Shown here: positions 1 through 31,200 of the stretch, piece by piece
Layout: every line of letters starts with the position of its first letter
Position numbering within the stretch: position 1 is the first letter of the stretch
Source of the DNA: Telmatactis stephensoni
Taxonomy: Eukaryota; Cnidaria; Anthozoa; Actiniaria; Isophelliidae
Length of the DNA: 64,000 nucleotides
Assembly: GCA_029948255.1 (NCBI GenBank)
Contig: JALIZF010001818.1
Span: 496,001 to 560,000, forward strand
Reading direction: 5' to 3'
Notes under the pieces: model-generated
What the model was told of the DNA's origin: nothing
What the model saw: only the letters and a program-made list of their open reading frames with translations
Databases searched by the model: none
Made by a program: the position numbers and the translations under genes

Positions 1-1655
1 ATTCTTGGCATCCTCTTTGGTGATAACTACGATAAAGAAGACGTCGACTACGTCCTCACCTTTTCTGACCATTTCCGCGAGACTGTGGGCTGTGGAATGG
101 CAGTGGATTTCATGCCTTGGTTGAAACACTTCTCAGATCCCAAGCTCGACAAGTTCTTTGACCTGATGGACACATGCAAAGAAATGATCAGCAGGCTTTA
201 TTATGAAAACCGACTCACACACAAGAAGGGACAAATCCGCAACCTTGCTGATTCCTTGCTTGAAAGCATCGAGAACCTTAAAGCTGAAAGACGAAAAGAG
301 AACGCATCGTCTGACTCCAAGGATGACCTTGAAGACCTTCCAACAGATCACCGTGATTCAATAATCACCCTTTTGGATCTCTTTGGAGCAGGCTTCGATA
401 CAAGTTCAATTACATTGTACTTTGCAATTGCATACTTGGCTGCCTACCCTGAAGTCCAAAAGAAGATTCAAGAAGAACTGGACCAAGTAGTTGGAAGAGA
501 CAGGAATCCCGAGCTCGAGGATCTGAAAGAGCTTCACTATACCAACGCCTTTATGTACGAATTGTTTCGTATCTCCTGTTTGGCTCCATCGTCCTTTCCA
601 CATTCCACGACAAGTGATGTCACTCTCCGTGATTTCTTCATTCCTAAAGGTAAGACAATAAGATCTAATGAACTTTCTTGTTGTATTATTGCTGATGATG
701 GGCCTTGAGGTTGGTGGATAACCCGTCACCTTTGTGAGAAGATATAAAGTTGGAAACATATCATGTAATAAAATAATGATGTTGACGATGGACCGTGTCT
801 CCAAGTTGGTGGATAATCCGTCATTTTTGTGAGATATAATGATGGTCTTCTTATGACGTATTAATGTTTATAATGGTCCTCGTGGTTGGTGGAGAACCCG
901 TCTCTTTTGTGAGGGAATAAAAAGTGGAAGATGGTCTTTCATAAGTGGCATTAATGTTGATAGCGGGCAGGTCTCGTGCGTGATTGATGGAAAAATCCGT
1001 GTCCTTTGTGAGGGGGATATAAAGTGGAGGATATGATGTTGGTCTCTTATTTGTTGAATTAATAAGTTGATGATGAACCGTGCTTCAAGGTTGGTGGGTA
1101 ACCCTGTCCTTTGTGAGCATATAAAGAGGAGCATATAACGATGGTCTTTCATTAGTCATAAACGTTGATGTAGGAGCCGGGCAACTCGTTGTTGGTGGAG
1201 AAGCGGCATCTGGTTTGTGAGAAACTATGAAAAGTAGAAAACAATTTGTGGATGTCAATCCGAATGTTAGATATTGAAATGACAAAAAATATTTGTTTAA
1301 CTTTAAGCGATTTCTTTCTTCCCAGGGACTGTGGTATTTGTAAACCTGTGGTCAGTGCTACACGACCCCACATCGTGGAAAGACCCTGATGTGTTCAACC
1401 CCGAGCGTTTCCTTGACGACAAAGGCAAAGTGGTCCATCCCAAAAGCCTCCAAAAATACCTCCCGTTCAGTGCTGGACGTCGTAGCTGTGCCGGTAAAGC
1501 TCTGGCTGAAGCAGAGATCCCTTTCCTGATCGCCAACATGGTTCATCAGTTTGAGTTCACGAGTAAAGAGCTACAGGAAAAAAAAGGAGATAAAAATAGA
1601 GTACGGCTTGACTCTCAAACCTGAGAAATTTACAGTTATCATAAAGGCACGATAA
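1..1655 (+). CDS. Cytochrome P450 (CYP2-clan), 3' part, frameshifted near the end
   Basis: Haem-thiolate monooxygenase, normally bound to the endoplasmic reticulum; substrate unknown. The reading frame is open from base 1, so earlier exons lie outside the window. Exon 1-649 carries the I-helix motif AGFDTSS and the K-helix ExxR (ELFR). The intron is 650-1325 (GTAAGA...CCCAG). The last exon begins at 1326 and joins in phase; it carries the PERF motif (NPERF) and the haem loop FSAGRRSCAG with its cysteine ligand. The direct frame ends at TGA 1622-1624, but the expected CYP2 ending GLTLKPEKFTVIIKAR is found one frame over and stops at 1653-1655. A run of eight A at 1578-1585 is the likely place of the shift. 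This is either a recent inactivation or a base-calling error in the homopolymer. Family assignment is firm; the subfamily is not. Confidence 0.9.
698..1235. repeat. Diverged ~85-110 bp tandem repeat in the P450 intron
   Basis: Six degenerate copies share a core like GTTGGTGGATAACCCGTC followed by CTTTGTGAG, often with ATATAAAG. Copies start near 700, 787, 872, 964, 1073 and 1174. They fill most of the intron. Confidence 0.8.
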
Positions 1656-2338: not shown

Positions 2339-2344
2339 AACATA
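2339..2344. repeat. Target-site duplication, left (AACATA)
   Basis: AACATA directly precedes the left terminal repeat and reappears directly after the right one at 11980-11985. A 6-bp duplication is the size known for Polinton/Maverick integration. Confidence 0.85.
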
Positions 2345-2437
2345 AGTAGTAGGAAAGTGCCGGTTTTGGGTCAATGTGGTACGATGGTACGATGGTACGG
2401 TGACGTCACGTCTATTTTTAGCTCTGGGTACAAGAGT
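2345..2437 (+). repeat. Left terminal inverted repeat, 93 bp
   Basis: Matches the reverse complement of 11887-11979 with four substitutions and no gaps. It contains GGTACGATGGTACGATGGTAC, then TGACGTCA, then TCTATTTTTAG, and ends at GGGTACAAGAGT. Homology stops abruptly afterwards. Confidence 0.93.
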
Positions 2438-2525
2438 GTAAGATTACGTCACACCTGTTTTGTGGTACGGTGGTACAATGACATCACGTCTATTTTAGAA
2501 CATTAACGGAAAGTCTATATTTAGA
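2400..2525 (+). promoter_or_regulatory. Left subterminal composite motif copies
   Basis: TGACGTCAC followed by GTCTATTTTTAG (2401-2421) is repeated as TGACATCAC plus GTCTATTTTAG (2479-2498). A weaker TCTATATTTAG follows at about 2514. Each strong copy is preceded by GGTAC-rich sequence. The same block is inverted at the right end. Candidate binding site for a terminal or replication protein, or an early promoter element. Confidence 0.6.
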
Positions 2526-2557
2526 AGAAGAAGAAAAAAAAAAAGGCCTACATAGTG

Positions 2558-2565
2558 TATATAAT
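2558..2565 (+). promoter_or_regulatory. TATA box of the PC4-like gene
   Basis: TATATAAT lies 72 bp upstream of the ATG. Confidence 0.5.
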
Positions 2566-2629
2566 ACGTGAACTGACAGTGGGAATCAAATCATTGTCAG
2601 TAAAACTTTGACAAGAACGAAACTTAAAG

Positions 2630-2956
2630 ATGTCGAAGCCACCAGCCCTTGATGAATTGTTTGTACTAAGTGAACGTTTATATTGTGCGACGGTGACCAA
2701 ATATACGGGGAAATTAAAAATCCACATTAGAAAGTACTTTGAACCAGAACCAGCCCCTGGTGAAGTACCACCACTACTGCCAACTAAATTTGGTGTGGCC
2801 TTGCACGTGGACGAATGGAAAGAATTGGTCAGAATTGCACCAATGCTGAGTGAAGTGATTGAACAAAACCAGGAACCACCTAAAGACAACTATGGTCCTA
2901 CAAAAGTGAAAACCAGGAGAAGTGTAAATGAAAAAAAACCATACGATCGAAAATGA
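2630..2956 (+). CDS. PC4/p15-like single-stranded-DNA-binding protein, 108 aa
   Basis: Resembles the C-terminal domain of transcriptional coactivator PC4 (p15), a small beta-sheet plus helix fold that binds single-stranded DNA as a dimer. The signature is a strand KLKIHIRKYF, a PTKFGVALHVDEW segment and a closing helix ending in EVIEQ, matching the PC4 pattern IRxYY...KGxxLxxxxW. The tail is Lys/Arg-rich (KVKTRRSVNEKK). In a virus-like element it could coat replication intermediates or modulate transcription. The ATG at 2630 follows a TATA box, and AATAAA lies at about 2982. A protein this short leaves some doubt, but the pattern over residues 25-80 is good. Confidence 0.7.
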   Translation: MSKPPALDELFVLSERLYCATVTKYTGKLKIHIRKYFEPEPAPGEVPPLLPTKFGVALHVDEWKELVRIAPMLSEVIEQNQEPPKDNYGPTKVKTRRSVNEKKPYDRK

Positions 2957-3130
2957 TTATAAAGTTTATGAAAGACAATAAAAATAATGGAGTAAAAATA
3001 ATACAATAAATAAAAAACAAAATAAAACAAATGTGTTCAAAGTGGAAAACCAAGAAAAGTGTAAATGACAAATTAAATCATACGATTGAAAATGTATGAA
3101 GTTTATGAAAGACAATAAAAATAATGGAGA
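2915..3130. repeat. Direct duplication of the PC4-like gene's 3' end
   Basis: The sequence around the stop codon and polyadenylation region (2915-2998) recurs at 3048-3130 with moderate divergence. Shared words include GAAGTGTAAATGA and TTTATGAAAGACAATAAAA. The second copy is not coding. Confidence 0.75.
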
Positions 3131-3139
3131 AAAAAGAAT

Positions 3140-4080
3140 ATGTGTTCATTCTGAGTCTTATTACACACTTGAGTTAGCAGTAAATCCACGTACTTACAAA
3201 TGCATAATAGCACACTTGATCACCCCTCCAAAAGTAACACCTACTGGAGTATCGTGAAATCATTCGAAAAGCGAAAACAAAAACAAACAAACAAAAAAAC
3301 CCGAAAAAAACACTGAACAAACAAAACAAAAACAAACAAAGAAAAAAATGGATCACATTATTTAAAAATCACTGTCGAACCCATCAGCACGCTTTCTTAT
3401 TTCATGAAAGAGGTCCTTCTATTTGTCCACTTCTGTTTTATACTTTGTGCTCAACGTTTATCTCAAATCCTCACAAACAGAATATATTTACCTTTCTGGT
3501 CTGGTGGTTCCGCCGGTACGTTGCTAGTTCTACCGGCACTAAATCATTTGTCTAACCCGATCTCCACTAGTGATCTTAACACTGACTAAAAGTAGCTCCA
3601 CCGCACCCTAGATTTTTGGATATGAAATTGGTTATGAATATAAAACGATAAAATCACGTTCATGCAGTTTGTACAAGCACGATAAATTGTTTATACAGAT
3701 CATACAAACACGAAGAATTACGTTTTATCTTCTTGTCTAACTACTGCATGGTAATCCATAGTTTATCTTTGAAGTTTCACAAACAGCGACAGAACCAGTC
3801 ATCCGATTATTCACCAATTGGTATTCTGAACAAGTTGAGACACATACCTGTTTTATCGGTTGCTTTACAATCATCGCTTATTTTAGAACGGCTGTAACAA
3901 GACTATTTTTAGAACACCGCTTGCCTGGTACGAAACACTTATACCTCAGAAGTATGAGGTACAGTAAGGCACGTACCACCTATTGTTCTCTACACGGAGT
4001 CATCACTATTTTTAGAATAGATCGTGGTGCAACAGGGATCTATTTTTAGTTTTTGACCGACAAACCTCGCCGGACTATAC
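3140..4080. other. Non-coding interval within the element; promoter-like motif array at its right end
   Basis: No convincing gene. A 61-codon ATG frame at 3404-3589 has a hydrophobic start but no other support. From 3878 to 4049 four CTATTTTTAG-type words recur (3878, 3902, 4004, 4040), one preceded by GAGTCATCA and a GGTAC-rich segment like the terminal blocks. They lead into the TATA box of the 191-aa gene. Confidence 0.5.
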
Positions 4081-4087
4081 TATAAAT
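4081..4087 (+). promoter_or_regulatory. TATA box of the 191-aa gene
   Basis: TATAAAT lies 41 bp before the ATG at 4122, an ordinary spacing for a short leader. Confidence 0.65.
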
Positions 4088-4121
4088 CGGACGTGTAAAA
4101 ACCAAAAATCAATTGTTCAAG

Positions 4122-4697
4122 ATGTCTCAAAAAGTGTCACTAAACGACGATGGGGTTGTGAATTTAGTGAACGAAATTGATGAGGAGAAATGCTCAATGG
4201 TTAATGTCATCGTACAATTCCTGTATGCAGAACTCTGTATCAGGAAAGCGTATGGAAAATTTGAATGTGAAGGTTGCATCCAGAACTGGTGTAGTCAAAG
4301 AGATCACGAATGTTGCCTACGAAGTGAAGGGGACATTTTTGAGAGTTTCTATGATGACATCAAGAATGACATTAACTTTGATGTAATTCATGAATTTTGT
4401 GAAGAGAGCTGTAAGCTACTTGGGATACCCATGACATCAGAGTGGGATGCATTCATTAATACCCTTCCAAGCAAGTCAGCATCCTCAGTTTACGGACTTT
4501 ACAACGAGGTAAAACATTCCAATCACGATGAGGATGATAAAATTATTGTAGACTACGTGAGCATGTTATGTGACGCCATGTATGACGCTGATGCATGGAT
4601 GCGCCAGACATTTGAATATTTTGAGTCAATGATGATTGATTTCAAAAATGAACCTCATTATGTTTTGGATGATAGTGGGTTGATAGTGGGTATTTGA
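4122..4697 (+). CDS. Cys-rich hypothetical protein of the element, 191 aa
   Basis: No family recognised. The protein is acidic. Residues about 35-65 hold a cysteine/histidine cluster (CEGC...WCSQRDHECC) that could bind one zinc. The rest looks alpha-helical, with further cysteines (CEESCKLLG, MLCDAMY). I chose the ATG at 4122 because the codon at 4113 in the same frame is TTG, and 4122 sits 41 bp after TATAAAT. AATAAA lies at about 4734, 37 bp past the stop. It stands alone between non-coding intervals, so it is probably its own transcription unit. Confidence 0.75.
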   Translation: MSQKVSLNDDGVVNLVNEIDEEKCSMVNVIVQFLYAELCIRKAYGKFECEGCIQNWCSQRDHECCLRSEGDIFESFYDDIKNDINFDVIHEFCEESCKLLGIPMTSEWDAFINTLPSKSASSVYGLYNEVKHSNHDEDDKIIVDYVSMLCDAMYDADAWMRQTFEYFESMMIDFKNEPHYVLDDSGLIVGI

Positions 4698-4942
4698 AAG
4701 AGTGTTAGAAATGTAAGACTTGTTTGATAAATGAATAAAATGTTGAACACCAGTTGTAATTGGTTTTATTTTATTCTATTTTTTACGACGGTTCACACAA
4801 TGCTCCTATTAGTTTCTTTACACTTTTTTTCGACATTTCTACACTTTTTTCGTTTATTATAAATGTCCATATATATATGTAGTGAATTGCAACCAGCTTC
4901 CAGAGAAAAGAAGTTCATTCGTTATAGGTTCTCTATGGATGA

Positions 4943-5155
4943 TCAAGTTTCTTTCTCTCTTCTTTGTTGTTTATCTTCTTGTTGTTGCTGTAGTCCCGTC
5001 AATTTCCTTCGACGCATTTGCCCTTTTAAGGGTACACCACCGAACTGACCACGACCTGATGTAACCCCGTTTTGTGGTCCCACTTTAAATGTGAGCTCTT
5101 TGAACCAGTCAGGGTGAGGTGAATTGCATGAGAAGTTGATCCTAACATCATCCAT
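4943..5155 (-). CDS. Small basic Gln-rich protein, 70 aa
   Basis: Function unknown. Starts at ATG 5155; the upstream in-frame codon at 5188 is GTG. The N-terminus is MDDVRINFSC. The middle is glycine-rich (GRGQFGGVPLKG) and the C-terminus basic and Gln-rich (MRRRK...QQQQED). A TATATAAA lies about 100 bp upstream (minus strand) and an AATAAA about 85 bp downstream at 4853-4858. The promoter and polyadenylation signals on the matching strand are the main support. It may be a short nucleic-acid-binding or virion core protein; this is a guess. Confidence 0.45.
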   Translation of the reverse strand: MDDVRINFSCNSPHPDWFKELTFKVGPQNGVTSGRGQFGGVPLKGQMRRRKLTGLQQQQEDKQQRREKET

Positions 5156-5255
5156 AATTATTTTTCGATATTTTAGTTTTTCAACCACTCTGTTTTAACC
5201 TTTCCGTACAATAAATCGCGTATGGGTTTGTGACGCGTAAAGTATGGGAGAACCG

Positions 5256-5263
5256 TTTATATA
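5256..5263 (-). promoter_or_regulatory. TATA box for the 70-aa gene
   Basis: TATATAAA on the minus strand, about 100 bp before the ATG. Confidence 0.35.
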
Positions 5264-5457
5264 TTTATCACACCGAACTAAATGGCATAATTACAAAATC
5301 AACCATCCGAATGAGATCATAAATCACTCTGCAGTTACTGAACGGTAGCTGTTCTGACACATGCAAATTAATTCAGATCTTTTCATGGTTGAAAGGCACA
5401 CAGACACAGCAGACTCAAATTCAGTGTGAAAAGTCCTTTTATTCAAGTTTTTATAAT

Positions 5458-6249
5458 TCAACATGATTCCTCTTGATCATCATCATGATCATCAATGAGT
5501 TTTAATTTCTTAAATTTCAACGACAGCTGATGGACTGCATCACAATCTCGACAACGATAAAACTTGGCTTTCATGGTATTCGCATCCACTGGAAAGATGT
5601 AACGGCAAATGTCACACTCGACCAGTTGATTGTCTCGACAATAGTACCCTTCTCGCCACAAGCATCGGGGGCATTGAACTACAGGTATGGTGTAGAACGG
5701 TTTAAAGTCACGACAAACGTGACACTCTTTGGGTTCTTCGTCCGAACTTTCAACCGATTCTGAACTTTCTGACTCTTCATCGGTTTCTTGTCCGTCATCT
5801 TCATCCTCTTCGTCGCTGTTTTCACTTTCAGACAAGTCACTGTCCTCCTCTTCCCCGGGTTGCCTAGCAACCAGATCCGCCAGCACCTTTTTGTTGCGGA
5901 TGAGTTTTTTGTCAATGCCTATTTCTGCCAGTCCTTCTGTGAACGTTTTGAGCCCTCTTGGAACTTTAACTTCGAGATGGTAAGGTAGCATGACATACTC
6001 AACGAGCTCTGCTATGTTGGTGACAGGGATTCTTCTTTGATGGTACATCATTTCGCCGTGAGAATTCCAGTACAAAATATTTTTCGAAGACGCCAGGGTA
6101 TGAAGAAATGCGAGGGCCTTTTCTTTGGGGATACTCGGGGAGAGATCCTGGCCAACCTCTTCAATTTCGTCGTCGTCAAAAGTGTCCCCTTCGGTGTCGG
6201 AAACCATATTGTCTTCAGAATCAGTGGAATCGCGATGTGCTCTTTTCAT
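5458..6249 (-). CDS. Acidic zinc-ribbon protein, 263 aa
   Basis: No named family recognised. Residues 1-40 are acidic and serine-rich. Residues about 45-135 form a globular domain (FLHTLASSKNILYW ... VPRGLKTFTEGLAEIG). Residues about 136-175 are an extreme Glu/Asp/Ser stretch. The C-terminal 80 residues carry four CxxC pairs (CHVC, CPRC, CDIC, CRDC) plus further cysteines, enough for two treble-cleft or ribbon zinc sites. The frame starts at ATG 6249; the upstream codon at 6258 is GTG. A TATAAATA 55 bp upstream overlaps the stop codon of the next gene. AATAAA is at 5438-5443. Likely nuclear and nucleic-acid- or chromatin-interacting; this is inference. Confidence 0.8.
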   Translation of the reverse strand: MKRAHRDSTDSEDNMVSDTEGDTFDDDEIEEVGQDLSPSIPKEKALAFLHTLASSKNILYWNSHGEMMYHQRRIPVTNIAELVEYVMLPYHLEVKVPRGLKTFTEGLAEIGIDKKLIRNKKVLADLVARQPGEEEDSDLSESENSDEEDEDDGQETDEESESSESVESSDEEPKECHVCRDFKPFYTIPVVQCPRCLWREGYYCRDNQLVECDICRYIFPVDANTMKAKFYRCRDCDAVHQLSLKFKKLKLIDDHDDDQEESC

Positions 6250-6303
6250 GTTGCTCACTCAAATGATCAACCACGAAATGAGCTTCTTCTTAACAGGCTG
6301 GAG

Positions 6304-6311
6304 TATTTATA
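6304..6311 (-). promoter_or_regulatory. TATA box of the 263-aa gene, overlapping the upstream stop codon
   Basis: TATAAATA on the minus strand. Its first TAA-containing bases include the stop codon (6307-6309) of the pX-like gene, so one sequence ends one gene and starts the next. Confidence 0.6.
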
Positions 6312-6633
6312 ACAAAAACAGCCTCAAAGCCGACATCAGGGGTGACATGATATCAGACACAAAACCACCACCTCGTTGAGCTAGAGTTTGTTTCTTGATT
6401 TTGAAAGGAACGGATGGGTTAGTTAATTCACGTATGTCGTCCACATGCTCTCTCAGTCTTTCTTTTTGCGCAGCGGTGATGGGTAACAACCCTTTGGATA
6501 AATTCGAGCAAACTTCACAAATGACATGAACCTGTTCTGGACTAGCGGTGGCCAGTAAAAGCGTTCTCTGATGTGGAGGACAATAGGTTAAATGATACAA
6601 ATATCCAAAATGATCACAGATCAAACGGCTCAT
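6307..6633 (-). CDS. Small pX-like protein with Cys motif and GGGF hydrophobic tail, 108 aa
   Basis: Starts at ATG 6633; the frame extends upstream only through a TTG. Residues about 20-45 read LLATASPEQVHVICEVCSN. A helical basic region follows (ITAAQKERLREH), then KKQTLAQRGGGFVSDI and a hydrophobic end. This layout (ATPEQ, CEVC, helix, QRGGF, hydrophobic tail) matches short proteins I associate with adintovirus/Polinton-type genomes and compare to adenoviral pX or membrane-active core proteins. That link is recalled, not searched. A virion-associated or membrane-interacting role is plausible. It is divergent from the ATPase gene across the 6711-6965 repeat block. Confidence 0.7.
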   Translation of the reverse strand: MSRLICDHFGYLYHLTYCPPHQRTLLLATASPEQVHVICEVCSNLSKGLLPITAAQKERLREHVDDIRELTNPSVPFKIKKQTLAQRGGGFVSDIMSPLMSALRLFLL

Positions 6634-6710
6634 GTTGCCTGGACGGAAGACAACTTTAAATGAAACGTTGACAGAAAACAACTCTATTTATTAGCCTGTT
6701 AGCGTGTCCA

Positions 6711-6965
6711 TCTAGATTCTAATCTAGAATCTAATAGAATCTAATAGAATCTAAAATCTAGTATAGAATCTAATAGACTAGATAGACTATATTCTAATCT
6801 AGAATCTAATAGAATCTATAGCTAAAATCTAATTTAGAATCTAATAGAATCTAAAATCTAATATAGAATTTAATAGAATCTAATAGAATCTAAAATCTAA
6901 TAAAGAATCTAATAGAATCTAAAATCTAATCTAGAATCTAATAGAATCTTATCTAATAGAATCTC
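6711..6965. repeat. AATCTAATAGAATCTAAA satellite between divergent viral-type genes
   Basis: About 250 bp of short A/T-rich units (TCTAATAGAATCTAAAATC and variants, several containing TCTAGA). It sits exactly in the intergenic region between the pX-like gene (-) and the ATPase gene (+). It may simply be microsatellite growth, or it may act as a replication or promoter spacer. Confidence 0.85.
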
Positions 6966-6972
6966 TAGAGGC

Positions 6973-6981
6973 CATAAATAG
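6973..6981 (+). promoter_or_regulatory. TATA-like box of the ATPase gene
   Basis: CATAAATAG lies 51 bp before the ATG at 7024. Confidence 0.5.
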
Positions 6982-7023
6982 CACTTCATTCTAGAATTGG
7001 TTTCATTTAGTACAAGACATGAC

Positions 7024-7887
7024 ATGATGCGGATGTGTCCTATTTGCGGCAAGCCACAACAGAATCTACACACTCATTTAAGTCGAACTCATCAGTTGGA
7101 CAATTCACAACGACAGTATTGGCTTAATCAAGAAAAAATACAAAAAGGGGGTCAGCGGTTTACTCCCTATCCTCAGATTAAACCCGACATGGAAACCAAA
7201 TGTGACCGCTTTCAATTACTCCACCCGTTTACAGCCTTGGTGAGTGGAATGACCGGCCCTGGAAAGACCGTCTGGGTTCAAAACTTACTGGAACATGCTT
7301 ACCAAGTCATTCAGCCCCCGCCTCAACATATTGTTTGGAGTTATTCCCAGTGGCAACATGCTTACAACCAGATGTTCAGAACTGTACCTGGGATTGAGTT
7401 TGTCAAAGGCATACCACATAATCTTGACGAGGATTGGTACTTTGACCCCAAAATCAACAATCTGATGGTCATTGATGACCAAATGACCGAGACTTCCAAC
7501 GACAAACGTATCTTGAATCTGTTCACAAAGGGATCCCATCACCGAAATCTCAGTGTCGTCTTCCTCTTGCAAAATGTCTATTTTAACGGTAAAATCATGC
7601 GCACTTTGAGTCTGAATGCAGCTTACCTTGTCCTGTTTAAAAATCCCAGAGACAAACTACAAATGATGACGTTAGGAAAACAAATGTACCCAGGAAAAAC
7701 GGAACAATTTCTCCAAAAGTATGAGGCCGCTGTTCAGCGGCCTTACGGCTACCTTTTTGTGGATCTCAAGCCCAACACCAGGGAGGAGTGTCGACTGCGT
7801 ACCAACGTTCTTCCAAATGATGCCTACCTACCACAGACTGGGGTTCAAACAGATGTCACAAAGACCATCGCTGATTGCAGGGATTAG
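7024..7887 (+). CDS. Packaging-type P-loop ATPase with N-terminal C2H2 finger, 287 aa
   Basis: Residues 5-22 form a C2H2-type finger (CPICGK...HTHLSRTH). The ATPase core follows: Walker A GMTGPGKT near residue 80, Walker B NLMVIDDQ near residue 150, then GSHHRNLSVVFLLQN and a LFKNPRDK segment. This order is typical of the A32/FtsK-HerA-like genome-packaging ATPases of Polintons, adintoviruses and virophages, which pump DNA into preformed capsids. Start chosen at ATG 7024; the frame opens earlier only with TTG. Length is normal for the family and the frame is intact. Only eight bases separate its stop from the next ATG. Confidence 0.88.
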   Translation: MMRMCPICGKPQQNLHTHLSRTHQLDNSQRQYWLNQEKIQKGGQRFTPYPQIKPDMETKCDRFQLLHPFTALVSGMTGPGKTVWVQNLLEHAYQVIQPPPQHIVWSYSQWQHAYNQMFRTVPGIEFVKGIPHNLDEDWYFDPKINNLMVIDDQMTETSNDKRILNLFTKGSHHRNLSVVFLLQNVYFNGKIMRTLSLNAAYLVLFKNPRDKLQMMTLGKQMYPGKTEQFLQKYEAAVQRPYGYLFVDLKPNTREECRLRTNVLPNDAYLPQTGVQTDVTKTIADCRD

Positions 7888-8212
7888 AAGAACAGATGGA
7901 CGCCATTTTGAAAGACCCTACCCTACCTCCAGATGTGAAAATCAAAGAATATGGTCCATTGTTGAATCGTTACCTTGCTCTACAACAACAACTCTCCAAT
8001 AACACCGTTTTAAAGATACCGAGACAGGAACCTATTTCAACCGTACCAACAATGGTCGACCAGATTCAGCCCCCTAACGTGACGACTCCGCAAAACGTGC
8101 CTTCGACAAGTCTGACTAGTGACAGTGGCATTGCAACAGCTACACCGAAAGAACCTTCCCTCCTCCAACGTCTGACATCCAAAGTCAGAGTTGGGAGTTG
8201 GGGCTGCTGTAA

Positions 8213-10072
8213 GTATTCCATAAATGGGCTGAGTATAGAAATCTCAAAAACCAAGTAAACCATCAAATCAAAGCCACCAAAACTAGGTATTTTCAATCGT
8301 ATTTCTCTGAGAACCAAGGAAATGTTAAAGATACCTGGAAAGGTATTAATTCAATACTTTCACGGAAGAAAAAGATAACTAAAATTACAAAACTTAGAAA
8401 AGGCAATGTAGAGATTAGCAATCAACTTGAGATCAGCAATGCGTTTAATAATCACTTCACAGATATAGGTCCAAATCTGGCGTCTAAAATTGTCACCCCT
8501 AATACAACATTTGATAAATATATGTGTCGAGTAGAAACTTCTTTTTTACTGAAAGAATTGACTACTGAAGAGGTTATTAAGCTTGTTGGAAAACTTCCAT
8601 CTGGCAAAAGCGAGGGTCTTGACGGCATCCCTACGCGACTCATTAAGTTAGCCATACCTTATGTTGCCTCTTCATTAACGCATATATTTAATCGAATTAT
8701 TGCAACAGGGTGCTTCCCCAGGGACTGGAAAAAGGCTAGAGTTTCCCCAATCTATAAGGAAGGCTCCAGAGCTGATCCAGGAAACTACAGACCTATATCT
8801 GTTCTGTCCGTGATTTCTAAAATTTTCGAAAAAGCTTTGTTTAATCAAATGTACAGCTACCTAGAGGAGCATAAAATCTTGGCTAAATTCCAATCAGGCT
8901 TTCGGCCTCTCCACTCAACTCTAACGGCACTCCTTGATGTTACTAATACCTGGTATTTAAACATGGACAGTGGTTTAACGAATGCCATCCTTTTTATCGA
9001 TCTTAAAAAGGCATTTGATACCATTGATCATGAAATACTTTTGAGCAAAATGGAGTGTTATGGGTTTCGAGGTCAGAGTCTGAACTTATTCAGAAATTAT
9101 CTAATTGGTAGATCTCAATGTACAGTAGTTAATAATGTAGTATCGTACTCGACTAATATAAGGTGTGGTGTACCACAAGGGTCAATTTTGGGTCCTTTGA
9201 TGTTTTTATTGTACATTAATGATCTACCAAATTGTAATTTGCTATCAGTCGCTCGCATGTACGCTGACGACACCAACTTAACCTATGCCTCTAGTGACCA
9301 CGATGATCTGCTTCCCTCTATGAATCATGATTTGGTAGAACTGAAAAAATGGCTAGACAGTAATAAACTGAGCCTCAATGTCATGAAAACTAAATGCATG
9401 TTTATAGGCACAAGGCAGAAAGTTTCAACATTACCCGCTGAGCCCGATATTAGTCTTGACGGGACGGCTATTGAGCGTGTAATGACCTATAAGTGCCTGG
9501 GTGTGCATTTGGATGAACGACTCACCTGGGAAACACATGTTTCGGAGATTTCAGCTAAAATATCAAAAACGCTTGGTGCTCTAAGACGACTCAAACCAAT
9601 TCTTCCCCAACAGGTGCTGATCACGATTTACAAATCGTTGATCTTACCATATCTAGATTACTGTAGTGCTGTTTGGGGTAATTTTGGTAAGGGTCTCGCT
9701 ACAGACCTCCAAAAACTACAAAATAGAGCAGCCCGTATAATTACTGGGGCTGACTACAGTGTTCGATCTACTCAGATTCTTCATAATCTAAACTGGCTGA
9801 CTTTAGAAGAGAGACGTTCTCAACAATTTAAAAAGCTCATGTTTAAAACAACTAATAATGATGTACCGGAATATCTTTACGAAAATTTTACTCGAATTAA
9901 TACGGTACATTCTCACAACTTAAGAGGCGTTAATGACAATCTTTTCATTCCAAGGCCTCAAACTGAAGCGCTCAAAAAGAGCTTTGTATATCGAGGAGCT
10001 TGCTTATGGAACAGTCTCCCTACTAAAGCAAAACAGGCCACCACTTTAAGTTCCTTCAACAATAATCTTTAG
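8213..10072 (+). CDS. LINE reverse transcriptase, partial
   Basis: Non-LTR (Jockey-superfamily, CR1/L2/Rex-like) reverse transcriptase. Motifs in order: GLDGIPTRLIK, NYRPISVLSVISKIFEK, QSGFRP, LKKAFDTIDHEILL, GVPQGSILGPLMF, the catalytic YADD, then the thumb region and a C-terminal LPYLDYCSAVWG domain. The frame is open from 8213 to the TAG at 10070-10072 with no internal stop. The N-terminal endonuclease domain is missing because of 5' truncation, so this copy cannot move by itself. An intact frame in a truncated copy suggests a recent insertion. Confidence 0.92.
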   Translation, partial: VFHKWAEYRNLKNQVNHQIKATKTRYFQSYFSENQGNVKDTWKGINSILSRKKKITKITKLRKGNVEISNQLEISNAFNNHFTDIGPNLASKIVTPNTTFDKYMCRVETSFLLKELTTEEVIKLVGKLPSGKSEGLDGIPTRLIKLAIPYVASSLTHIFNRIIATGCFPRDWKKARVSPIYKEGSRADPGNYRPISVLSVISKIFEKALFNQMYSYLEEHKILAKFQSGFRPLHSTLTALLDVTNTWYLNMDSGLTNAILFIDLKKAFDTIDHEILLSKMECYGFRGQSLNLFRNYLIGRSQCTVVNNVVSYSTNIRCGVPQGSILGPLMFLLYINDLPNCNLLSVARMYADDTNLTYASSDHDDLLPSMNHDLVELKKWLDSNKLSLNVMKTKCMFIGTRQKVSTLPAEPDISLDGTAIERVMTYKCLGVHLDERLTWETHVSEISAKISKTLGALRRLKPILPQQVLITIYKSLILPYLDYCSAVWGNFGKGLATDLQKLQNRAARIITGADYSVRSTQILHNLNWLTLEERRSQQFKKLMFKTTNNDVPEYLYENFTRINTVHSHNLRGVNDNLFIPRPQTEALKKSFVYRGACLWNSLPTKAKQATTLSSFNNNL

Positions 10073-10262
10073 AAACCATTAGACATATTTTTATAAATAA
10101 TTTTAATCTTGGAAATCGTTTTTTATTTAAGTGTAAGTAGATTAGCAAATTAGTATTTATTTTCCTTAGAAATTTTTTACACGGCTCAAAGGGAGAGCAC
10201 TTGTAAAGTTAGTGATTTGACACCGTGTTTAAATAAAGTTCATTCATTCATTCATTCATTCA
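8213..10262 (+). mobile_element. 5'-truncated CR1/L2-like LINE inserted in the viral-type gene
   Basis: About 2.05 kb: an open RT frame, a 3' untranslated region and an (ATTC)n tail at about 10240-10262. The 5' junction lies between about 8180 and 8213 and cannot be fixed by eye. No clear target duplication is visible. The same 3' tail type appears in the fragment at 40475-40545. Confidence 0.88.
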
Positions 10263-10780
10263 CCTTTCAAATCTACTAGTCCACAGGGTACAGAGGAGAT
10301 ACCGTCGACTCAATTGAAAGTAGACCAACCCTCTACTTCCACTCCAATCACTCTATCGAGTGTAGCCCCACCAGAGTTTCCACCCACACCTCCATCCAGT
10401 AAAGAAAATCCCCGAGCTCCCAGGTGGATACGTTATCAAGATGAACATAAGTATAGAGGACAGGTGTTCCAACCCCCTAGACGTTCAGAACGAATAAGAG
10501 CCATGATTAAGTCCATACCCGGTTGGGAAAAATATTAAATAGCATTTGACTCATGTATTGTAACTAAAAAAAAAAAAAAGAAAGAAAGAAAGAAAGAAAA
10601 TAAAACCGATTGCAACTAGTGTTACTGGTGTCTTGTTCTTTACGATAGTTGATAGCTTTGCTTTTTGCAGTTAGCCTTTTGATAGTAACTTGTTGCTAGG
10701 ATAAAGACAAAAAACACACACACGTTTTTCTTTATATAAAACGTTTTTATTGTACCATAACAAATCAATTTACAATTTCA

Positions 10781-11590
10781 TTAGTAGTTCGAAGGACAAC
10801 AAGAAGGTTGACATGTATATTTTTCAGGAAATTTTAGTCTTTTTACATCAAAGATTACCGATGGTAATTCTGGATGGTGTCCATATTTCATGATAAATAG
10901 TCGATCTCCTTGCTCACAAGACTTTTGCCATCCAAGTACAGCCCTTTTAGTTAGTTCGGGTAGATACAGAGTCAAATTTATTTCTCCTTGTTCTATTAGT
11001 TCGTGAACCCATTGAACTTCGTCTTGTAGAGACTGTGGTGGGAGTGGGTGGTTGTTGACTAGTCGATCAAAACATTTAAGGCATATTTGACTGTTGTGCC
11101 ATCCACACCAGTCGCAGTTGTAGTATCCATACGAACAGTAATCACCTACACTACGATCTATACATTGTGGTTTTTGAGGACACTGTTCTAGCCAGTTGGC
11201 TGGGTCTTGTATGCCATGGCAATAAATGGGAGCACATCCAAAAGAAATGTCTTCGTCGACTTCATCTTTTCCGTCCCAAAAACTTTTAGCCATCCAATCA
11301 AAAAACTGTGGACTACACAAATGAGAAAAAATGACTGATATGTCCGGTGACTTTTCATTTCTTTGTTGAAGAATCCACTCGACGCGACGTCGTATCTGAT
11401 AAGCGGCTTGATGAATGATTGGGTTTTCTGTATGCTCTTCGTTTGCTTGCAACAATACATCAAAATACAGGTATTCTGGGACTGGAGACTCTCCCTTTTT
11501 CCAAGAACGGTGTTCTTCATGTAAATCTCCTAAAATGGGGATTGTACTGACTGCAATAGCCCATGCTGTGGTGTTTTTATCTGAGGACAT
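10781..11590 (-). CDS. Cys/Trp-rich hypothetical protein of the element, 269 aa
   Basis: No family recognised. The frame is open further upstream to 11812, but that extension runs through the subterminal repeat motifs, and TATAAA (11631-11636) lies 41 bp before ATG 11590, so I start there. The middle (about residues 125-180) is cysteine-rich (CAPIYCHG, CPQKPQC, YNCDWCGWHNSQICLKCF) and could hold two or more zinc sites. The C-terminus ends CQPSCCPSNY. AATAAA at 10746-10751. It is the last gene before the right terminal repeat and converges on the split gene. Confidence 0.75.
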   Translation of the reverse strand: MSSDKNTTAWAIAVSTIPILGDLHEEHRSWKKGESPVPEYLYFDVLLQANEEHTENPIIHQAAYQIRRRVEWILQQRNEKSPDISVIFSHLCSPQFFDWMAKSFWDGKDEVDEDISFGCAPIYCHGIQDPANWLEQCPQKPQCIDRSVGDYCSYGYYNCDWCGWHNSQICLKCFDRLVNNHPLPPQSLQDEVQWVHELIEQGEINLTLYLPELTKRAVLGWQKSCEQGDRLFIMKYGHHPELPSVIFDVKRLKFPEKYTCQPSCCPSNY

Positions 11591-11630
11591 AGTTGTTCTT
11601 CGACTAGTCTCATGTTCTTTACCCAAAGCA

Positions 11631-11636
11631 TTTATA
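11631..11636 (-). promoter_or_regulatory. TATA box of the 269-aa gene
   Basis: TATAAA on the minus strand, 41 bp before the ATG, the same spacing as for the 191-aa gene at the other end. Confidence 0.6.
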
Positions 11637-11670
11637 GGAACGGTTCTTAAAACGGTTCTCAGTAGTTTCT

Positions 11671-11790
11671 TAAAATAGATCCATCTTCCCAAAATAGATG
11701 TGACTCCCTCTGGAGAACAATAGGAGGTACCTACCACCCCTGCACCTCGTTCCGCTCGTCTAAAAATAGATATGACCTCATCGTACCTCG
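11671..11790 (-). promoter_or_regulatory. Right subterminal composite motif copies
   Basis: On the minus strand, GAGGTCATATCTATTTTTAG (about 11761-11780) and GAGTCACATCTATTTTGGG (about 11688-11706) repeat the block found in the terminal repeats. A shorter ATCTATTTTAAG (about 11671) follows. A GGTAC word accompanies the first. Confidence 0.55.
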
Positions 11791-11886
11791 CTCCGCTCAT
11801 CCACAAATACACCTGTTCACCCGTAGGGGGCTAGTCTGACTTTGTCTGGGGAGGGGGAGGGGCTAGCCCCGGGGTCCCCCTGGCCA

Positions 11887-11979
11887 ACTCTTGTACCCAC
11901 AGCTAAAAATAGACATGACGTCACTGTACCACCGTACCATCGTACCACATTGACCCAAAACCGGCACTTTCCTACTACT
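11887..11979 (-). repeat. Right terminal inverted repeat, 93 bp
   Basis: Reverse complement of 2345-2437 with four substitutions. Followed directly by the second AACATA. Confidence 0.93.
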
Positions 11980-11985
11980 AACATA
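11980..11985. repeat. Target-site duplication, right (AACATA)
   Basis: Second copy of the 6-bp host duplication. Confidence 0.85.
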
Positions 11986-27313: not shown

Positions 27314-28293
27314 ACTAGATGAAGTGTGGTGTATTAGTTACTGTTAGTATGGTCTTCAGCTAGGCACGATATGAAAGCTTTATAATATTCCTTAATAAAG
27401 AGATCCGTTAAAAATCATAATGTTTATTTTGACCACTAGTAGAGACTGACCACTAGTTATAGTAGATAAATCAAGATATAGATTGTACAGAAATGAAGAT
27501 TTTGGAAGTTGGACTGGGAACGAGGTAGTTGAGCCTCGTTCCCAGGTAAGTAACTATGCCAACAAGAGACTACTGATTTCTGCTGTTGGTCAATAAAACG
27601 TGTGTCCTTCATTTAATGTGTTTCTTGCTGTAATAATAATGACGATGTTGATGTTGATGATGATGATGATGATAGTAATGGCCATTTATAATGAAAAAAC
27701 TCTTTAGAGTGCATATCAGGTAGTTGTTTCATTGTCAGTTACTACAACTAATTAAAATTCAAAACATGTAGCCATTTAGATTTTCACAAAATTCTTCACT
27801 GGTTTCGAAACGATTTACACACAGTTTTCATTAACCGCGGTGGACTGGGTTCTCCTGCCGTGGTCATACACGGTGAATAGCTAATATGCAACCAAGCTTG
27901 CACAGCACTCTGGGAGTTGTAGTCCAGTACCATTACTATCTGTACCTTTAACAGGATTAGTCACTTATGCGAGATGTTCAATTATGAGAAATAGTCACTT
28001 CTGTGAGATGCTTTGCTCATGCTAAACAGGTGTTTGCTTATCTGCGCGCTATGTTCGCTTACAAGAGGTGGTGTTGTTGTTCGAGTTGGCGTGCGAAACT
28101 TCACCTTTGCAAAAGAATTTATGAGTTTGGGGCTTCCTTTGTTCCTATTTCTCTCTCTGTCCCTTTTCTCCCTTTTCTAGTCTCGTCACGCAAAACTCCT
28201 TAATTATCGATAGAAGTGGGTCGTCACGCAACGCCCCTGAACTTGAATCGATGGCTCATGAGGTCAGCGGTGACTCATTGCATAACAACAAAT
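27314..28293. other. Intergenic between transgelin and DNAJC28
   Basis: No gene seen. A short GATGATGATGAT microsatellite at about 27650-27675. The DNAJC28 promoter must lie at its right end; no TATA box is evident. Confidence 0.5.
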
Positions 28294-31200
28294 ATGGCGG
28301 CAGACGTGATGAAAACTGTAACTTTGTTTAAATTTTTCAAAGCTAAATCCATCTCCTACGTTACATTTTGTTATCTAAAAAGGCAGTTACACTGTTCAGT
28401 TTCGTATTTCCGACCCAAAAATGCTCTTACGGTACGAGAATCGTTTCTGTTACTGGGTTTAAAAGAGGAAGAGGCCAACGAAAGTGAGGTCCGAGCGGCG
28501 TATTTCAAACTAGCAAAACAGTACCATCCAGATAGCGGCAAGTCTACGGCTAACGCTGAGAAGTTTGCAAGCATTGACCGCGCTTATAGAACGGTGCTGA
28601 GTCATCTGAGTAAAAAGATTACAGAGGAGACAATCGATGAAAGTAATGAGGACAAATTTCATATCAGACACACGGCTCCTCAACACAGGTAATCCAATTA
28701 TTCACCGTTGTGATATTTGTTGTTGAATGCTCGGGGTTGAATGGTGTCTTTGAGATCCTATTATTTGGTCGTAATGTTGTAGAACTGAGGAGGGGGTTGG
28801 GGCTAACTGTTCCACACACACAAGATATACATTTGCAATCCAGTGCTTTTAGCACAGGAAGCCCATACAAGCAAAAAAATTAATCACTTACATGAAGTCT
28901 TGTTTACGTCATCTTTAGTCTTTATTTAGGAAGCTGGGAGATTTTTTAAAACTCACTTTAATGGCTTGAAATCGCTAATTAATAAAGACTATTAAAGACG
29001 ACGTAAACAAGACTTCATGTAAGTGATTAATTTTTTTATTCATTTTTTACTCTCAGCTCTCAAAGCTTGTATGGGCTTCCTGTGATTAGATGAGTTATTA
29101 ATTAGTATTTTAGGTGACATCACCTAAATTTGAATAATTCACATGAAAACAGTTTGTTTCTTCTTGGGGGTAGCGATAAGGTAGAATGCCTTGTTTCTGC
29201 ATTCTTTCTCTAAATATGTTTGCTCATCGATAAGTGGAGCCCCCCTGATTTGCTTGACTGTTGCTTCTGCGGGCTTTTACTATTTTTGGTGACATCACCT
29301 AAATAACTAACTAAATTTATGTAACAATTCAGCAGTGAGACTAAAAGCACTCTACAGCATGTGAATGCTGTTTCAGACAAGAACTTAAACAGTGCAAAAA
29401 TGCAACAACTGTCACGTGGGTCCCCTGCTTCATGACCCACAGTTTCAGAACAATTTGAATTCATGTAATCCCATAAAATGGAGTATCCCCTTGTTATTCT
29501 TTTATATGCATTATGCATTAATGCCATTAATTTTGAAAGGAGGAAGTGGGGAGGAGGAATTAGCAGATAAGCCCTGAGCATCTGCATCAGGAGCTACCAT
29601 TCATAGTAATAATTTGATCCAGAAATTGTTTGACTAGAAAAAGAGATATTTTCACAAATTGAATTTTACAACTTAGCTCATCATTTTATCATCTGATTCT
29701 TTATTCCTCAAAGGAAGTATTTAGAGTATGGTGGCCTTGGCACAGGAACCCCAACCATGAGAGAAAAACAGTATAGACAACACAGATTTGAAAAGGCTAT
29801 AGAAGACGTGCATTCACATAAAACTACAAAATTTGGCTCAGATGAAACATCTATTGCACAACCAGAGAAAAAGGCAATTAAAAAAGCTATGATTTCGGGA
29901 GCAATAGAGCGTATGGTGGAAGACCTGATACAAGAGGCCATGTCAAAGGGGGAATTTAAAGAATTACCTGGAAGTGGGAAGCCGATCAAAAGTGATCCCC
30001 TTAAAGATCCTTATATGGGTGAGGTTTTCATTTAATATAAGAAGCTACATACCAAAAAGAATTCTGAAATTGGATCCAAAATGTCATGTCATTTATAGGA
30101 TGATGACGAGGAGGATGATAATGGCACAGACAGTCTTATAAGTAGTCAGGCTTTCTTAAAGGAAGGAAAGGGAGAAATTGGGGGAGAAGGGTAAAAGAAA
30201 AGTGTTCCCCCTCTTTGCTCTCTTCCCCTTGGCCCTACCCCAAGGGCCTGATACTCAGGCTATGGTGATGAAGAAGATCAGACCTGTTGCCAAGGAGTTG
30301 CTGAGTTGTTCAAGGAGTTATACAAATACCCCTCCCAATTCTCTTCAGTCTAAATGAAGATGTACTGGATATCAAAAATAACTAAATTTGACAAAAATGA
30401 ACCACCTTTTCTGAGGTTCTGGTGACAGACATTATTATGATGGTGATGATAAAGAGTTTGATGACCATCACCATTGGTGATGAATATTAGGCAAGAGTGA
30501 TTTAGCAATTATGACCAATGCAATGTTAAAGAGGATGCTGCGTGCGCTGACAAATTTTGTTCAAAATGACCATTGACGTCACTGTCATCCAAAAGAGGAT
30601 GTGAAAACAAGTGAAATGGTGTCCAATATGTGGTGTTGTGATGTTGTCACGGTAGTCACACAATGAACCAATGCAATAAATTCATCTAACGTCCTGCTTT
30701 AGTGTTGCGTCACGTTTGCTAATTAAATTGAATTAATTATAAAATTAAATGTTAATTAATTTAAAATCACTCTAATATGATAATGATGACCTCTGCAATG
30801 ACAATTCAAATTAAGTAAGTTGTACATACATTGTAGGTATCATCATTTAGAATAAGAAAGTTTCCTCTATGTACTAGATAGATATTTTGGATATCCTAGC
30901 TTTTAATTTTGGTCCAACAGAGATTAAATAAAATTACAAATTTTAGAGAAAGAAAGCAAAAGTTCATGATAGCTAGTGCGCACTCTCAATACTAGTCACT
31001 ATGCACGTACTTTAATACATGATGACAAATTCTACTGTTCATTAGAGAAATATAATTTGCTAGAAATATTCTTCTAGAGTCTCTTTGATTTTTTCTTTTT
31101 CATACAATAACTGAAAATTTGTAACTTATTCAATCATTCCTGGTGATGGGCCAAATGGCCCCAAAGCTTGGATATTAATGCAGAAGAAACTTTCTAATTC

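What the first reader, a model, noticed from the sequence alone, without database searches (positions are those of the whole stretch)
2345..11979. Complete virus-like transposon with ATPase but no visible polymerase, integrase or capsid
Seen: 93-bp TIRs, AACATA duplications, eight intronless genes including a C2H2-finger packaging-type ATPase, a PC4-like protein and a pX-like small protein. Known: Polintons/adintoviruses make 6-bp TSDs and carry this ATPase class along with PolB, integrase and capsid genes. Inference: this 7.6-kb (LINE-free) unit is either a satellite mobilised by a helper or a separate lineage whose replication and capsid genes are unrecognised. Its clean boundaries mean it moved as this unit, not as a degraded larger copy.
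Basis: partly seen in the sequence, partly recalled or inferred. Interest (0 to 1): 0.9.

Follow-up and report, generated by a model that had tools for sequence, protein, structure and literature searches.

The report
Virus satellite with own packaging motor
This element belongs to a family of short virus-like insertions whose ATPase gene occurs at no fewer than 136 places in its genome and whose ends begin like those of 15.6-kb Polintons in the same genome that carry polymerase, integrase and predicted capsid genes; the window copy has none of those genes, so it is likely a satellite that borrowed them and is predicted to have loaded the borrowed capsids with its own packaging motor.

Summary
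In detail: 93-bp inverted ends, AACATA duplications, a packaging-type ATPase, no recognised polymerase, integrase or capsid gene. The host genome decides between the explanations. This ATPase occurs at 136 scored places. Nine satellite-type elements, the window included, were bounded at both ends; all nine have their own 6-bp duplication and, LINE-bearing window copy apart, measure 5.3-7.8 kb. Their usual core is g263, pX and an ATPase with a fused tail, plus variable arm genes. The same genome holds 15.6-kb Polintons with the same first bases (AGTAGTAGGAAA), carrying PolB, integrase, protease, predicted hexon and penton, and their own ATPase (about 33% identical). Satellite arms match helper arms at 87-90% DNA identity. 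1 of 136 satellite ATPases lies within 30 kb of a predicted hexon; 54 of 60 hexon places tested have an integrase within 20 kb. So this is neither a simple deletion nor a lineage with hidden capsid genes, but most likely a helper-dependent Polinton satellite that keeps its own packaging genes. The window copy is broken, one sister (C5) carries an integrase remnant, and packaging into helper capsids is a prediction.

The parts
2339..2344 (.). left target-site duplication AACATA
2345..2437 (+). left terminal inverted repeat, begins AGTAGTAGGAAAG, contains TGACGTCA and CTATTTTTAG
2470..3116 (+). arm 89-90% identical in DNA to the right arm of helper Polintons C72 and C1196
2630..2956 (+). PC4-like gene; 94% identical protein in helpers
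4122..4697 (+). g191, Cys-rich 191-aa protein; 42% identical homologue beside the helper integrase
4943..5155 (-). g70, small ORF conserved in sister copies
5458..6249 (-). g263, WNxxGE domain shared with Polinton protein X, acidic stretch, Cys pairs at C-terminus
6307..6633 (-). pX-like 108-aa protein
6710..6979 (.). TAGAATCTAA-type repeat array between the divergent pX and ATPase starts
7024..7887 (+). packaging-type ATPase with N-terminal C2H2 finger; frame broken after residue 287
7896..8189 (+). middle piece of the same gene (tail; similar to the N-terminal part of Polinton protein X)
8190..10260 (+). later LINE insertion (RVT_1 in ORF 8522-10072), not part of the element
10261..10540 (+). 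end of the ATPase tail after the LINE
10781..11590 (-). H269, Cys-rich 269-aa protein (ORF open to 11800); 97.6% identical next to two sister ATPases over the part covered
11887..11979 (-). right terminal inverted repeat
11980..11985 (.). right target-site duplication AACATA

Best explanation
This is a copy, now broken, of a short Polinton-ended element that carries its own packaging-type ATPase and a pX-like protein but no recognised polymerase, integrase or capsid gene, and it is likely a satellite that complete Polintons of the same genome replicated and inserted and whose own ATPase is predicted to have loaded it into their capsids. Shown: the short family with its ends, duplications and gene content; complete Polintons with the same first bases in the same genome; arms shared with them. 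Inferred: (1) the helper's PolB copies the satellite from its AGTAGTAGGAAA termini; (2) the helper's integrase inserts it, giving the 6-bp duplications; (3) the satellite's ATPase, pX and g263, counterparts of a three-gene block that stands together in Polintons, load satellite DNA in preference to helper DNA into helper capsids; (4) satellites stay matched to helpers by recombining onto helper arms (PC4, R117, g191, once integrase).
For: Own genome G000 (483.5 Mb): ATPase at 136 scored places; 77 of 135 rows tallied have an uninterrupted frame of 470-570 aa. Nine satellite-type elements with both ends found, nine with a 6-bp duplication: window AACATA; C396 ACTGGA, C703 CACCTA, C75 ACTAAC, C48 GACTCG, C786 GGTGTG; C269 GACGAC; C5 TGCAAA, C354 GGGCAT. 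Helper integrase, penton, protease and PolB pieces and the L002 hexon gave no match in the window, in 7 ATPase-centred pieces or in the outer pieces of 5 copies, while helper ATPase and X did. Helpers: C1196 15,626 bp (ATGCGA), C72 15,601 bp (TCTGTT) with protease, X, pX, own ATPase, PC4, predicted hexon, integrase, predicted penton, PolB PF03175 E=3e-9 in C1196. Arms: window 2470-3116 is 89-90% identical to the helper right arm; R117 arms of three short copies are 87-89% identical to the helper left arm. 1 of 136 satellite ATPases lies within 30 kb of any of 74 hexon places; 54 of the 60 hexon places tested have an integrase within 20 kb. ATPase tree: satellites group with Actinostola and other database proteins (98/98), apart from the host's C1196/C72/C1300/C151 clade (100/99).
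Against: No movement, particle or expression was observed. The two complete helpers share only about the first 26 nt of the window TIR (88%). C151, with the full window-type TIR, has an inserted tnp2-type transposase and no left end was found. The hexon matches of C72 and C1196 each hold one TGA, so these helper copies may be impaired; other hexon places, such as C813, C69 and C620, have none. Hexon and penton names rest on gene order, size and recall: Pfam, PHROGs and the PDB sequence search gave no match. Satellite C5 holds a split integrase remnant and a g191 homologue in its right arm; C344 has integrase fragments 12.8 kb away, unresolved. The helper ATPase of C813 is closer to the satellite's (45%). 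That the ATPase drives packaging rests on family membership. Both structure predictions failed. g263-to-X similarity is modest (22 bits at best).
Confidence: 0.77

Rival explanations
1. Simple internal-deletion derivative of a Polinton: the short unit is a shortened helper whose remaining genes are leftovers without use.
For: PC4 and the adjoining arm are 89-94% identical to helpers; C266 shows that shortened same-TIR Polintons do arise.
Against: The ATPase is 32-35% identical to that of four helpers and the tail is fused to part of X; 77 of 135 tallied copies keep a full open ATPase frame; pX keeps 108 aa in most of its 14 database relatives at 61-86% identity.
Confidence: 0.08
2. One half of a two-part virus: satellite and Polinton are two obligate segments that complement each other.
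For: The two types share first bases and arm genes and coexist in one genome.
Against: The larger elements have their own ATPase, pX and X, so they do not need the small one for these.
Confidence: 0.05
3. Interference or defence element: the satellite's ATPase and pX act as decoys that block helper packaging, and the host gains from it.
For: Many copies with an open ATPase frame beside helpers with many copies; virophage and PLV precedents seen only in listings.
Against: Repeated recent insertion with duplications shows that the elements themselves multiply, which a pure decoy does not explain.
Confidence: 0.07
4. Separate self-sufficient lineage whose replication and capsid genes are unrecognised.
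For: H269, g191, R117 and g70 have no assigned function and their structures could not be predicted.
Against: Short copies of 5.6-6.2 kb hold only ATPase, pX, g263, g70-type and one arm gene; g191 and R117 are helper genes; the ends carry the Polinton end motif.
Confidence: 0.03

Closest known systems
Polinton/Maverick elements, here C1196 and C72 of the same genome
   Same: 6-bp duplications, (AGT)2 termini, packaging ATPase, pX, WNxxGE domain, PC4 or R117 arm genes
   Different: No PolB, penton, hexon or protease found and, except for a remnant in C5, no integrase; about one third to one half of the length; ATPase diverged and fused to part of X
Adintoviruses (definition seen in passages of PMC11071296)
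   Same: packaging ATPase and a pX-class protein
   Different: The defining PolB and hexon are absent
Virophages (comparison recalled)
   Same: small DNA parasite predicted to depend on a larger DNA virus and found integrated in a host genome
   Different: Virophages encode their own capsid and use giant viruses; here capsid genes are missing and the predicted helper is a Polinton
Phage satellites such as P4, PICI and cfPICI (analogy, recalled)
   Same: small helper-dependent element that would redirect helper structural proteins
   Different: Eukaryotic host, Polinton helper, no sequence relation tested or claimed
Non-autonomous DNA transposons and MITEs
   Same: helper-type ends, integration function predicted in trans
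   Different: Carries a conserved protein-coding packaging cassette

Membership tests
Polinton/Maverick (autonomous) | 6-bp target-site duplication | tested here: met
   window; sisters
Polinton/Maverick (autonomous) | inverted ends with (AGT)2 / (ACT)2 motif | tested here: met
   motif from a passage of PMC8097293
Polinton/Maverick (autonomous) | protein-primed PolB | tested here: not met
Polinton/Maverick (autonomous) | RVE integrase | tested here: not met
   window; sister C5 has a remnant
Polinton/Maverick (autonomous) | hexon and penton genes | tested here: not met
   with predicted hexon and penton proteins as queries
Polinton/Maverick (autonomous) | packaging ATPase | tested here: met
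Adintovirus | PolB with OTU-like domain, and hexon | tested here: not met
Virophage | own major capsid protein | tested here: inconclusive
   no match to a Polinton hexon; virophage capsids were not used as queries
Satellite of a Polinton | short unit without replication and capsid genes, inserted repeatedly as such | tested here: met
Satellite of a Polinton | candidate helper with matching ends in the same genome | tested here: met
Satellite of a Polinton | replication and encapsidation depend on the helper | not testable with these tools
   needs particles or living material
Simple internal-deletion derivative | all retained genes near-identical to the parent's | tested here: not met
   PC4 94% but ATPase 32-35% against four helpers

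The most novel reading that the evidence does not exclude
Animal genomes host an old lineage of Polinton satellites that steal helper capsids by bringing their own DNA-packaging motor and core protein, so that helper shells are filled with satellite DNA: an animal counterpart of phage capsid pirates that outnumbers its helpers and re-docks onto whichever helper arm circulates.
Probability: 0.4. Interest if true: 0.93.

Novelty: new variant of a known kind. Interest (0 to 1): 0.85.

Why it matters
My searches of the held papers listed no satellite of a Polinton that carries a packaging motor without a capsid (only titles, abstracts and some passages were seen), and at least one Polinton survey removed elements under 10 kb as incomplete (passage of PMC4028283), which would hide this class. 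The genome offers short copies with open frames and complete helpers side by side, so whether Polintons form particles, and whether those can be hijacked, becomes testable. The same ATPase family has at least 2841 database relatives; how many of them sit in satellites is unknown.

Tried and rejected
Led nowhere: AlphaFold of H269 (9-row alignment, pLDDT 37.6) and of g191 (single sequence, pLDDT 35.5), too poor for fold searches, so none was run. Six scans of viral contigs gave no relatives. PHROGs and Rfam gave nothing useful for the element. The PDB sequence search with the ATPase gave no real match. g191 and R117, which look alike around a CxxC, gave no significant alignment. PHROGs and the PDB sequence search did not confirm the hexon label, nor PHROGs the penton label.

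Considered and rejected: simple deletion, two-part virus, hidden capsid lineage (see rivals). The tail-to-X match was checked against 20 sets of shuffled ORFs (best shuffle 7.5 bits, real 18.5-26.8). Results against my reading: integrase remnant in C5, one TGA in the hexon matches of the two complete helpers, C813 ATPase at 45%, unstarred wider tree join. Rows dropped: ATPase tally left out 3 of 138 match rows (C37 in two pieces, one C973 piece); one search used 74 places merged from 97 hexon rows; one search used the first 60 of those places, 83 places merged from 118 integrase rows, and all 28 PC4 rows.
Full report
What is in the window. The element spans 2345-11979, with 93-bp inverted ends (96%) and AACATA on both sides. 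Its termini read AGTAGTAGG...CCTACTACT. A passage of PMC8097293 gives 5'-(AGT)2//(ACT)2-3' with 6-bp duplications as one end type of vertebrate Mavericks. ORFs of 191 aa or more occurred in 0 of 200 dinucleotide shuffles of either part; ORFs of 108 aa or more did occur (43 and 9 of 200), so the small genes rest on conservation. The ATPase gene of this copy is broken after residue 287 and again by a LINE at about 8190-10260; seven sister copies run straight across that point.

What the proteins are. The ATPase has at least 2841 relatives (3020 candidates scored, 120 listed), among them Actinostola and Oculina entries. Of the 120 listed, 101 have a tail of 60 residues or more after the ATPase core and 66 a C2H2 pattern near the start. 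The 269-aa protein has 8 relatives and the pX-like protein 14, at 61-86% identity; none of these 22 carries a name. A scan of genome contigs returned three loci in bacterial assemblies that encode this ATPase type: L001 and L002 (tubeworm symbiont assembly) and L003. In all three, ATPase, pX and a third protein, X, stand side by side. L002 continues with an integrase (rve+chromo), a penton-like and a hexon-like ORF and a protease (Peptidase_C5 19.6 bits, just under its cut-off). The hexon and penton names come from gene order, size and recall; Pfam, PHROGs and the PDB sequence search gave no match. Against 196 ORFs of these loci the window pX matches L003 at E=1e-10 and g263 matches X of L001 at E=9e-7 (L002 5e-4, L003 0.03). 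A profile of the ATPase tails matches the first part of X in all three loci (E=6e-8, 2e-7, 2e-5; best shuffle 0.05). X therefore appears split in this family: its first part fused to the ATPase, its second in g263.

The family in its own genome. G000 has 483.5 Mb in 1782 contigs. The host is most likely a sea anemone, inferred from Actinostola proteins being 79-86% identical to the ATPase range listed. The ATPase occurs at 136 scored places, a lower bound; of 135 rows tallied, 77 have an uninterrupted frame of 470-570 aa. In the seven fetched sister pieces, pX and g263 lie divergently upstream of the ATPase in six; C48 differs. ATPase DNA among the six plus-strand copies L006-L011 is 99.2-100% identical, which points to recent spread. 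Ends were found for C396 (5637 bp), C703 (5611), C75 (5738), C48 (6125) and C786 (6217), each with inverted ends of roughly 250-350 bp and its own 6-bp duplication. C269 (7046 bp), with the window's TIR type, g191, g70, g263, ATPase and H269 in the window's order, has GACGAC; its ATPase holds 8 stops. C354 (5321 bp) has GGGCAT and C5 (7836 bp) TGCAAA. With the window that is nine of nine bounded satellite-type elements. C85 gave only a right end and C344 none.

What the short elements contain. C396, C703 and C786 hold a g70-type ORF, g263, pX, a 492-494-aa ATPase and one right-arm gene, R117 or H269. H269 next to the C49 and C786 ATPases is 97.6% identical to the window's over 210 residues although those ATPases are 89% identical, so the elements are mosaics. 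C48 lacks pX and g263 in the pieces read; its left arm holds a piece resembling the first part of the helper ATPase. Helper integrase, penton, protease and PolB pieces and the L002 hexon gave no match in the window, the 7 ATPase-centred pieces or the outer pieces of 5 copies; helper ATPase and X did. The exception found later is C5, whose right arm holds a split integrase remnant and a g191 homologue.

The helpers. The L002 hexon finds 97 matches in G000 and the C72 integrase 118, six of them 98-100% identical with full open frames. C1196:2605-18230 (15,626 bp, ATGCGA) and C72:488400-504000 (15,601 bp, TCTGTT) are complete by ends and duplications. Order in C72: R117, g191 homologue, integrase (rve E=1e-15), predicted penton, a pVI-like ORF (recalled name), predicted hexon and protease on +; X, pX, ATPase, a weak PolB piece (E=0.012) and PC4 on -. 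In C1196 PolB reaches PF03175 E=3e-9 and an overlapping ORF has an Endonuclease_7-like match just under its cut-off. Their hexon matches hold one TGA each. C151 has PolB (E=7e-24 and 4e-14), integrase, predicted penton and hexon, protease, X, pX and ATPase, and 18 kb beyond the hexon a right end with the window-type TIR and PC4; a tnp2-type transposase lies between and no left end was found. C266 (6416 bp, ACTATA) has the window TIR, PC4 and remnants of X, hexon and protease. All 18 element ends printed, from 11 elements, begin AGTAGTAGGAAA.

How satellites and helpers are related. Window 2470-3116 is 89-90% identical in DNA to the helper right arm, PC4 included, and three further stretches match at 67-86%; the R117 arm of three short copies is 87-89% identical to the helper left arm. 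13 of 28 PC4 matches lie within 25 kb of one of 60 hexon places. By contrast 1 of 136 satellite ATPases lies within 30 kb of any of 74 hexon places (C754, 24 kb) and 3 of 136 within 20 kb of any of 83 integrase places: C5, inside the element; C354, outside its ends; C344, unresolved. 54 of 60 hexon places have an integrase within 20 kb. Satellites thus combine a long-separate core with arms taken from, or shared with, helpers. In the ATPase tree (34 rows) the window and four sister copies fall in a starred set of 12 rows (98/98) with database proteins including Actinostola, outside the C1196/C72/C1300/C151 clade (100/99). The helper C813 goes with the tubeworm loci (85/69, not starred) and the wider join with Oculina proteins is not starred (85/91); whether the coral proteins sit in satellites is untested.

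How it likely works. Helper PolB would copy the satellite from the shared first dozen bases; AGTAGT repeats suit the jump-back start of protein-primed copying (recalled). Helper integrase would insert it. Since the satellite keeps counterparts of the ATPase-pX-X block and lacks the shell genes, the most economical role is to direct helper shells to its own DNA. The decoy alternative is not excluded. All six CTATTTTTAG sites of the window lie in the element (0.35 expected), at the TIRs and upstream of g191 and H269, and the gap between pX and ATPase holds a TAGAATCTAA array (11 copies, 0 in the rest of the window): a possible two-class promoter system, untested.

Literature. Passages seen: PMC11071296, PMC8097293, PMC4642659, PMC4028283; other papers only in listings. 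PMC4028283 says that nine elements without a capsid gene also lacked ATPase and protease, and that elements under 10 kb were removed as incomplete. The present family is the reverse case and lies below that limit. Searches for non-autonomous, mini, truncated or satellite Polintons listed no such family; subscription papers and repeat databases were not searched.

Noticed in passing
window 6710-6979: Array of TAGAATCTAA-type repeats between the divergent pX and ATPase starts; DNA similar to it lies in the same gap of the seven sister pieces.
   Followed up: partly
window 2412, 3903, 4006, 4040, 11760, 11903: CTATTTTTAG, which fits a MEF2-type consensus (recalled), occurs 6 times in the window, always inside the element; TGACGTCA lies in both TIRs but also 14 times elsewhere in the window.
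   Followed up: partly
L001, L002, L003: Polinton contigs with animal-type relatives sit in bacterial assemblies QGON01 (Escarpia symbiont) and JAJRUL01, likely contamination.
   Followed up: partly
G000:C56:1114656-1120594, C1022:35480-41315, C29:776602-781767, C344:223038-228463: Pairs of integrase fragments in opposite orientation about 4-6 kb apart, as if another short family has integrase sequence near both ends.
   Followed up: no
L062 (C1196:12500-15200): An ORF overlapping the helper PolB ORF carries an Endonuclease_7-like match slightly under Pfam's cut-off.
   Followed up: no
window 44824-45301: Pentanucleotide TGCTA tandem array, 95 copies, open in three frames.
   Followed up: no
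window 97-708 and 28204-28692: Host gene pieces that look like a cytochrome P450 exon and a DnaJ-type protein (by eye, not searched).
   Followed up: no
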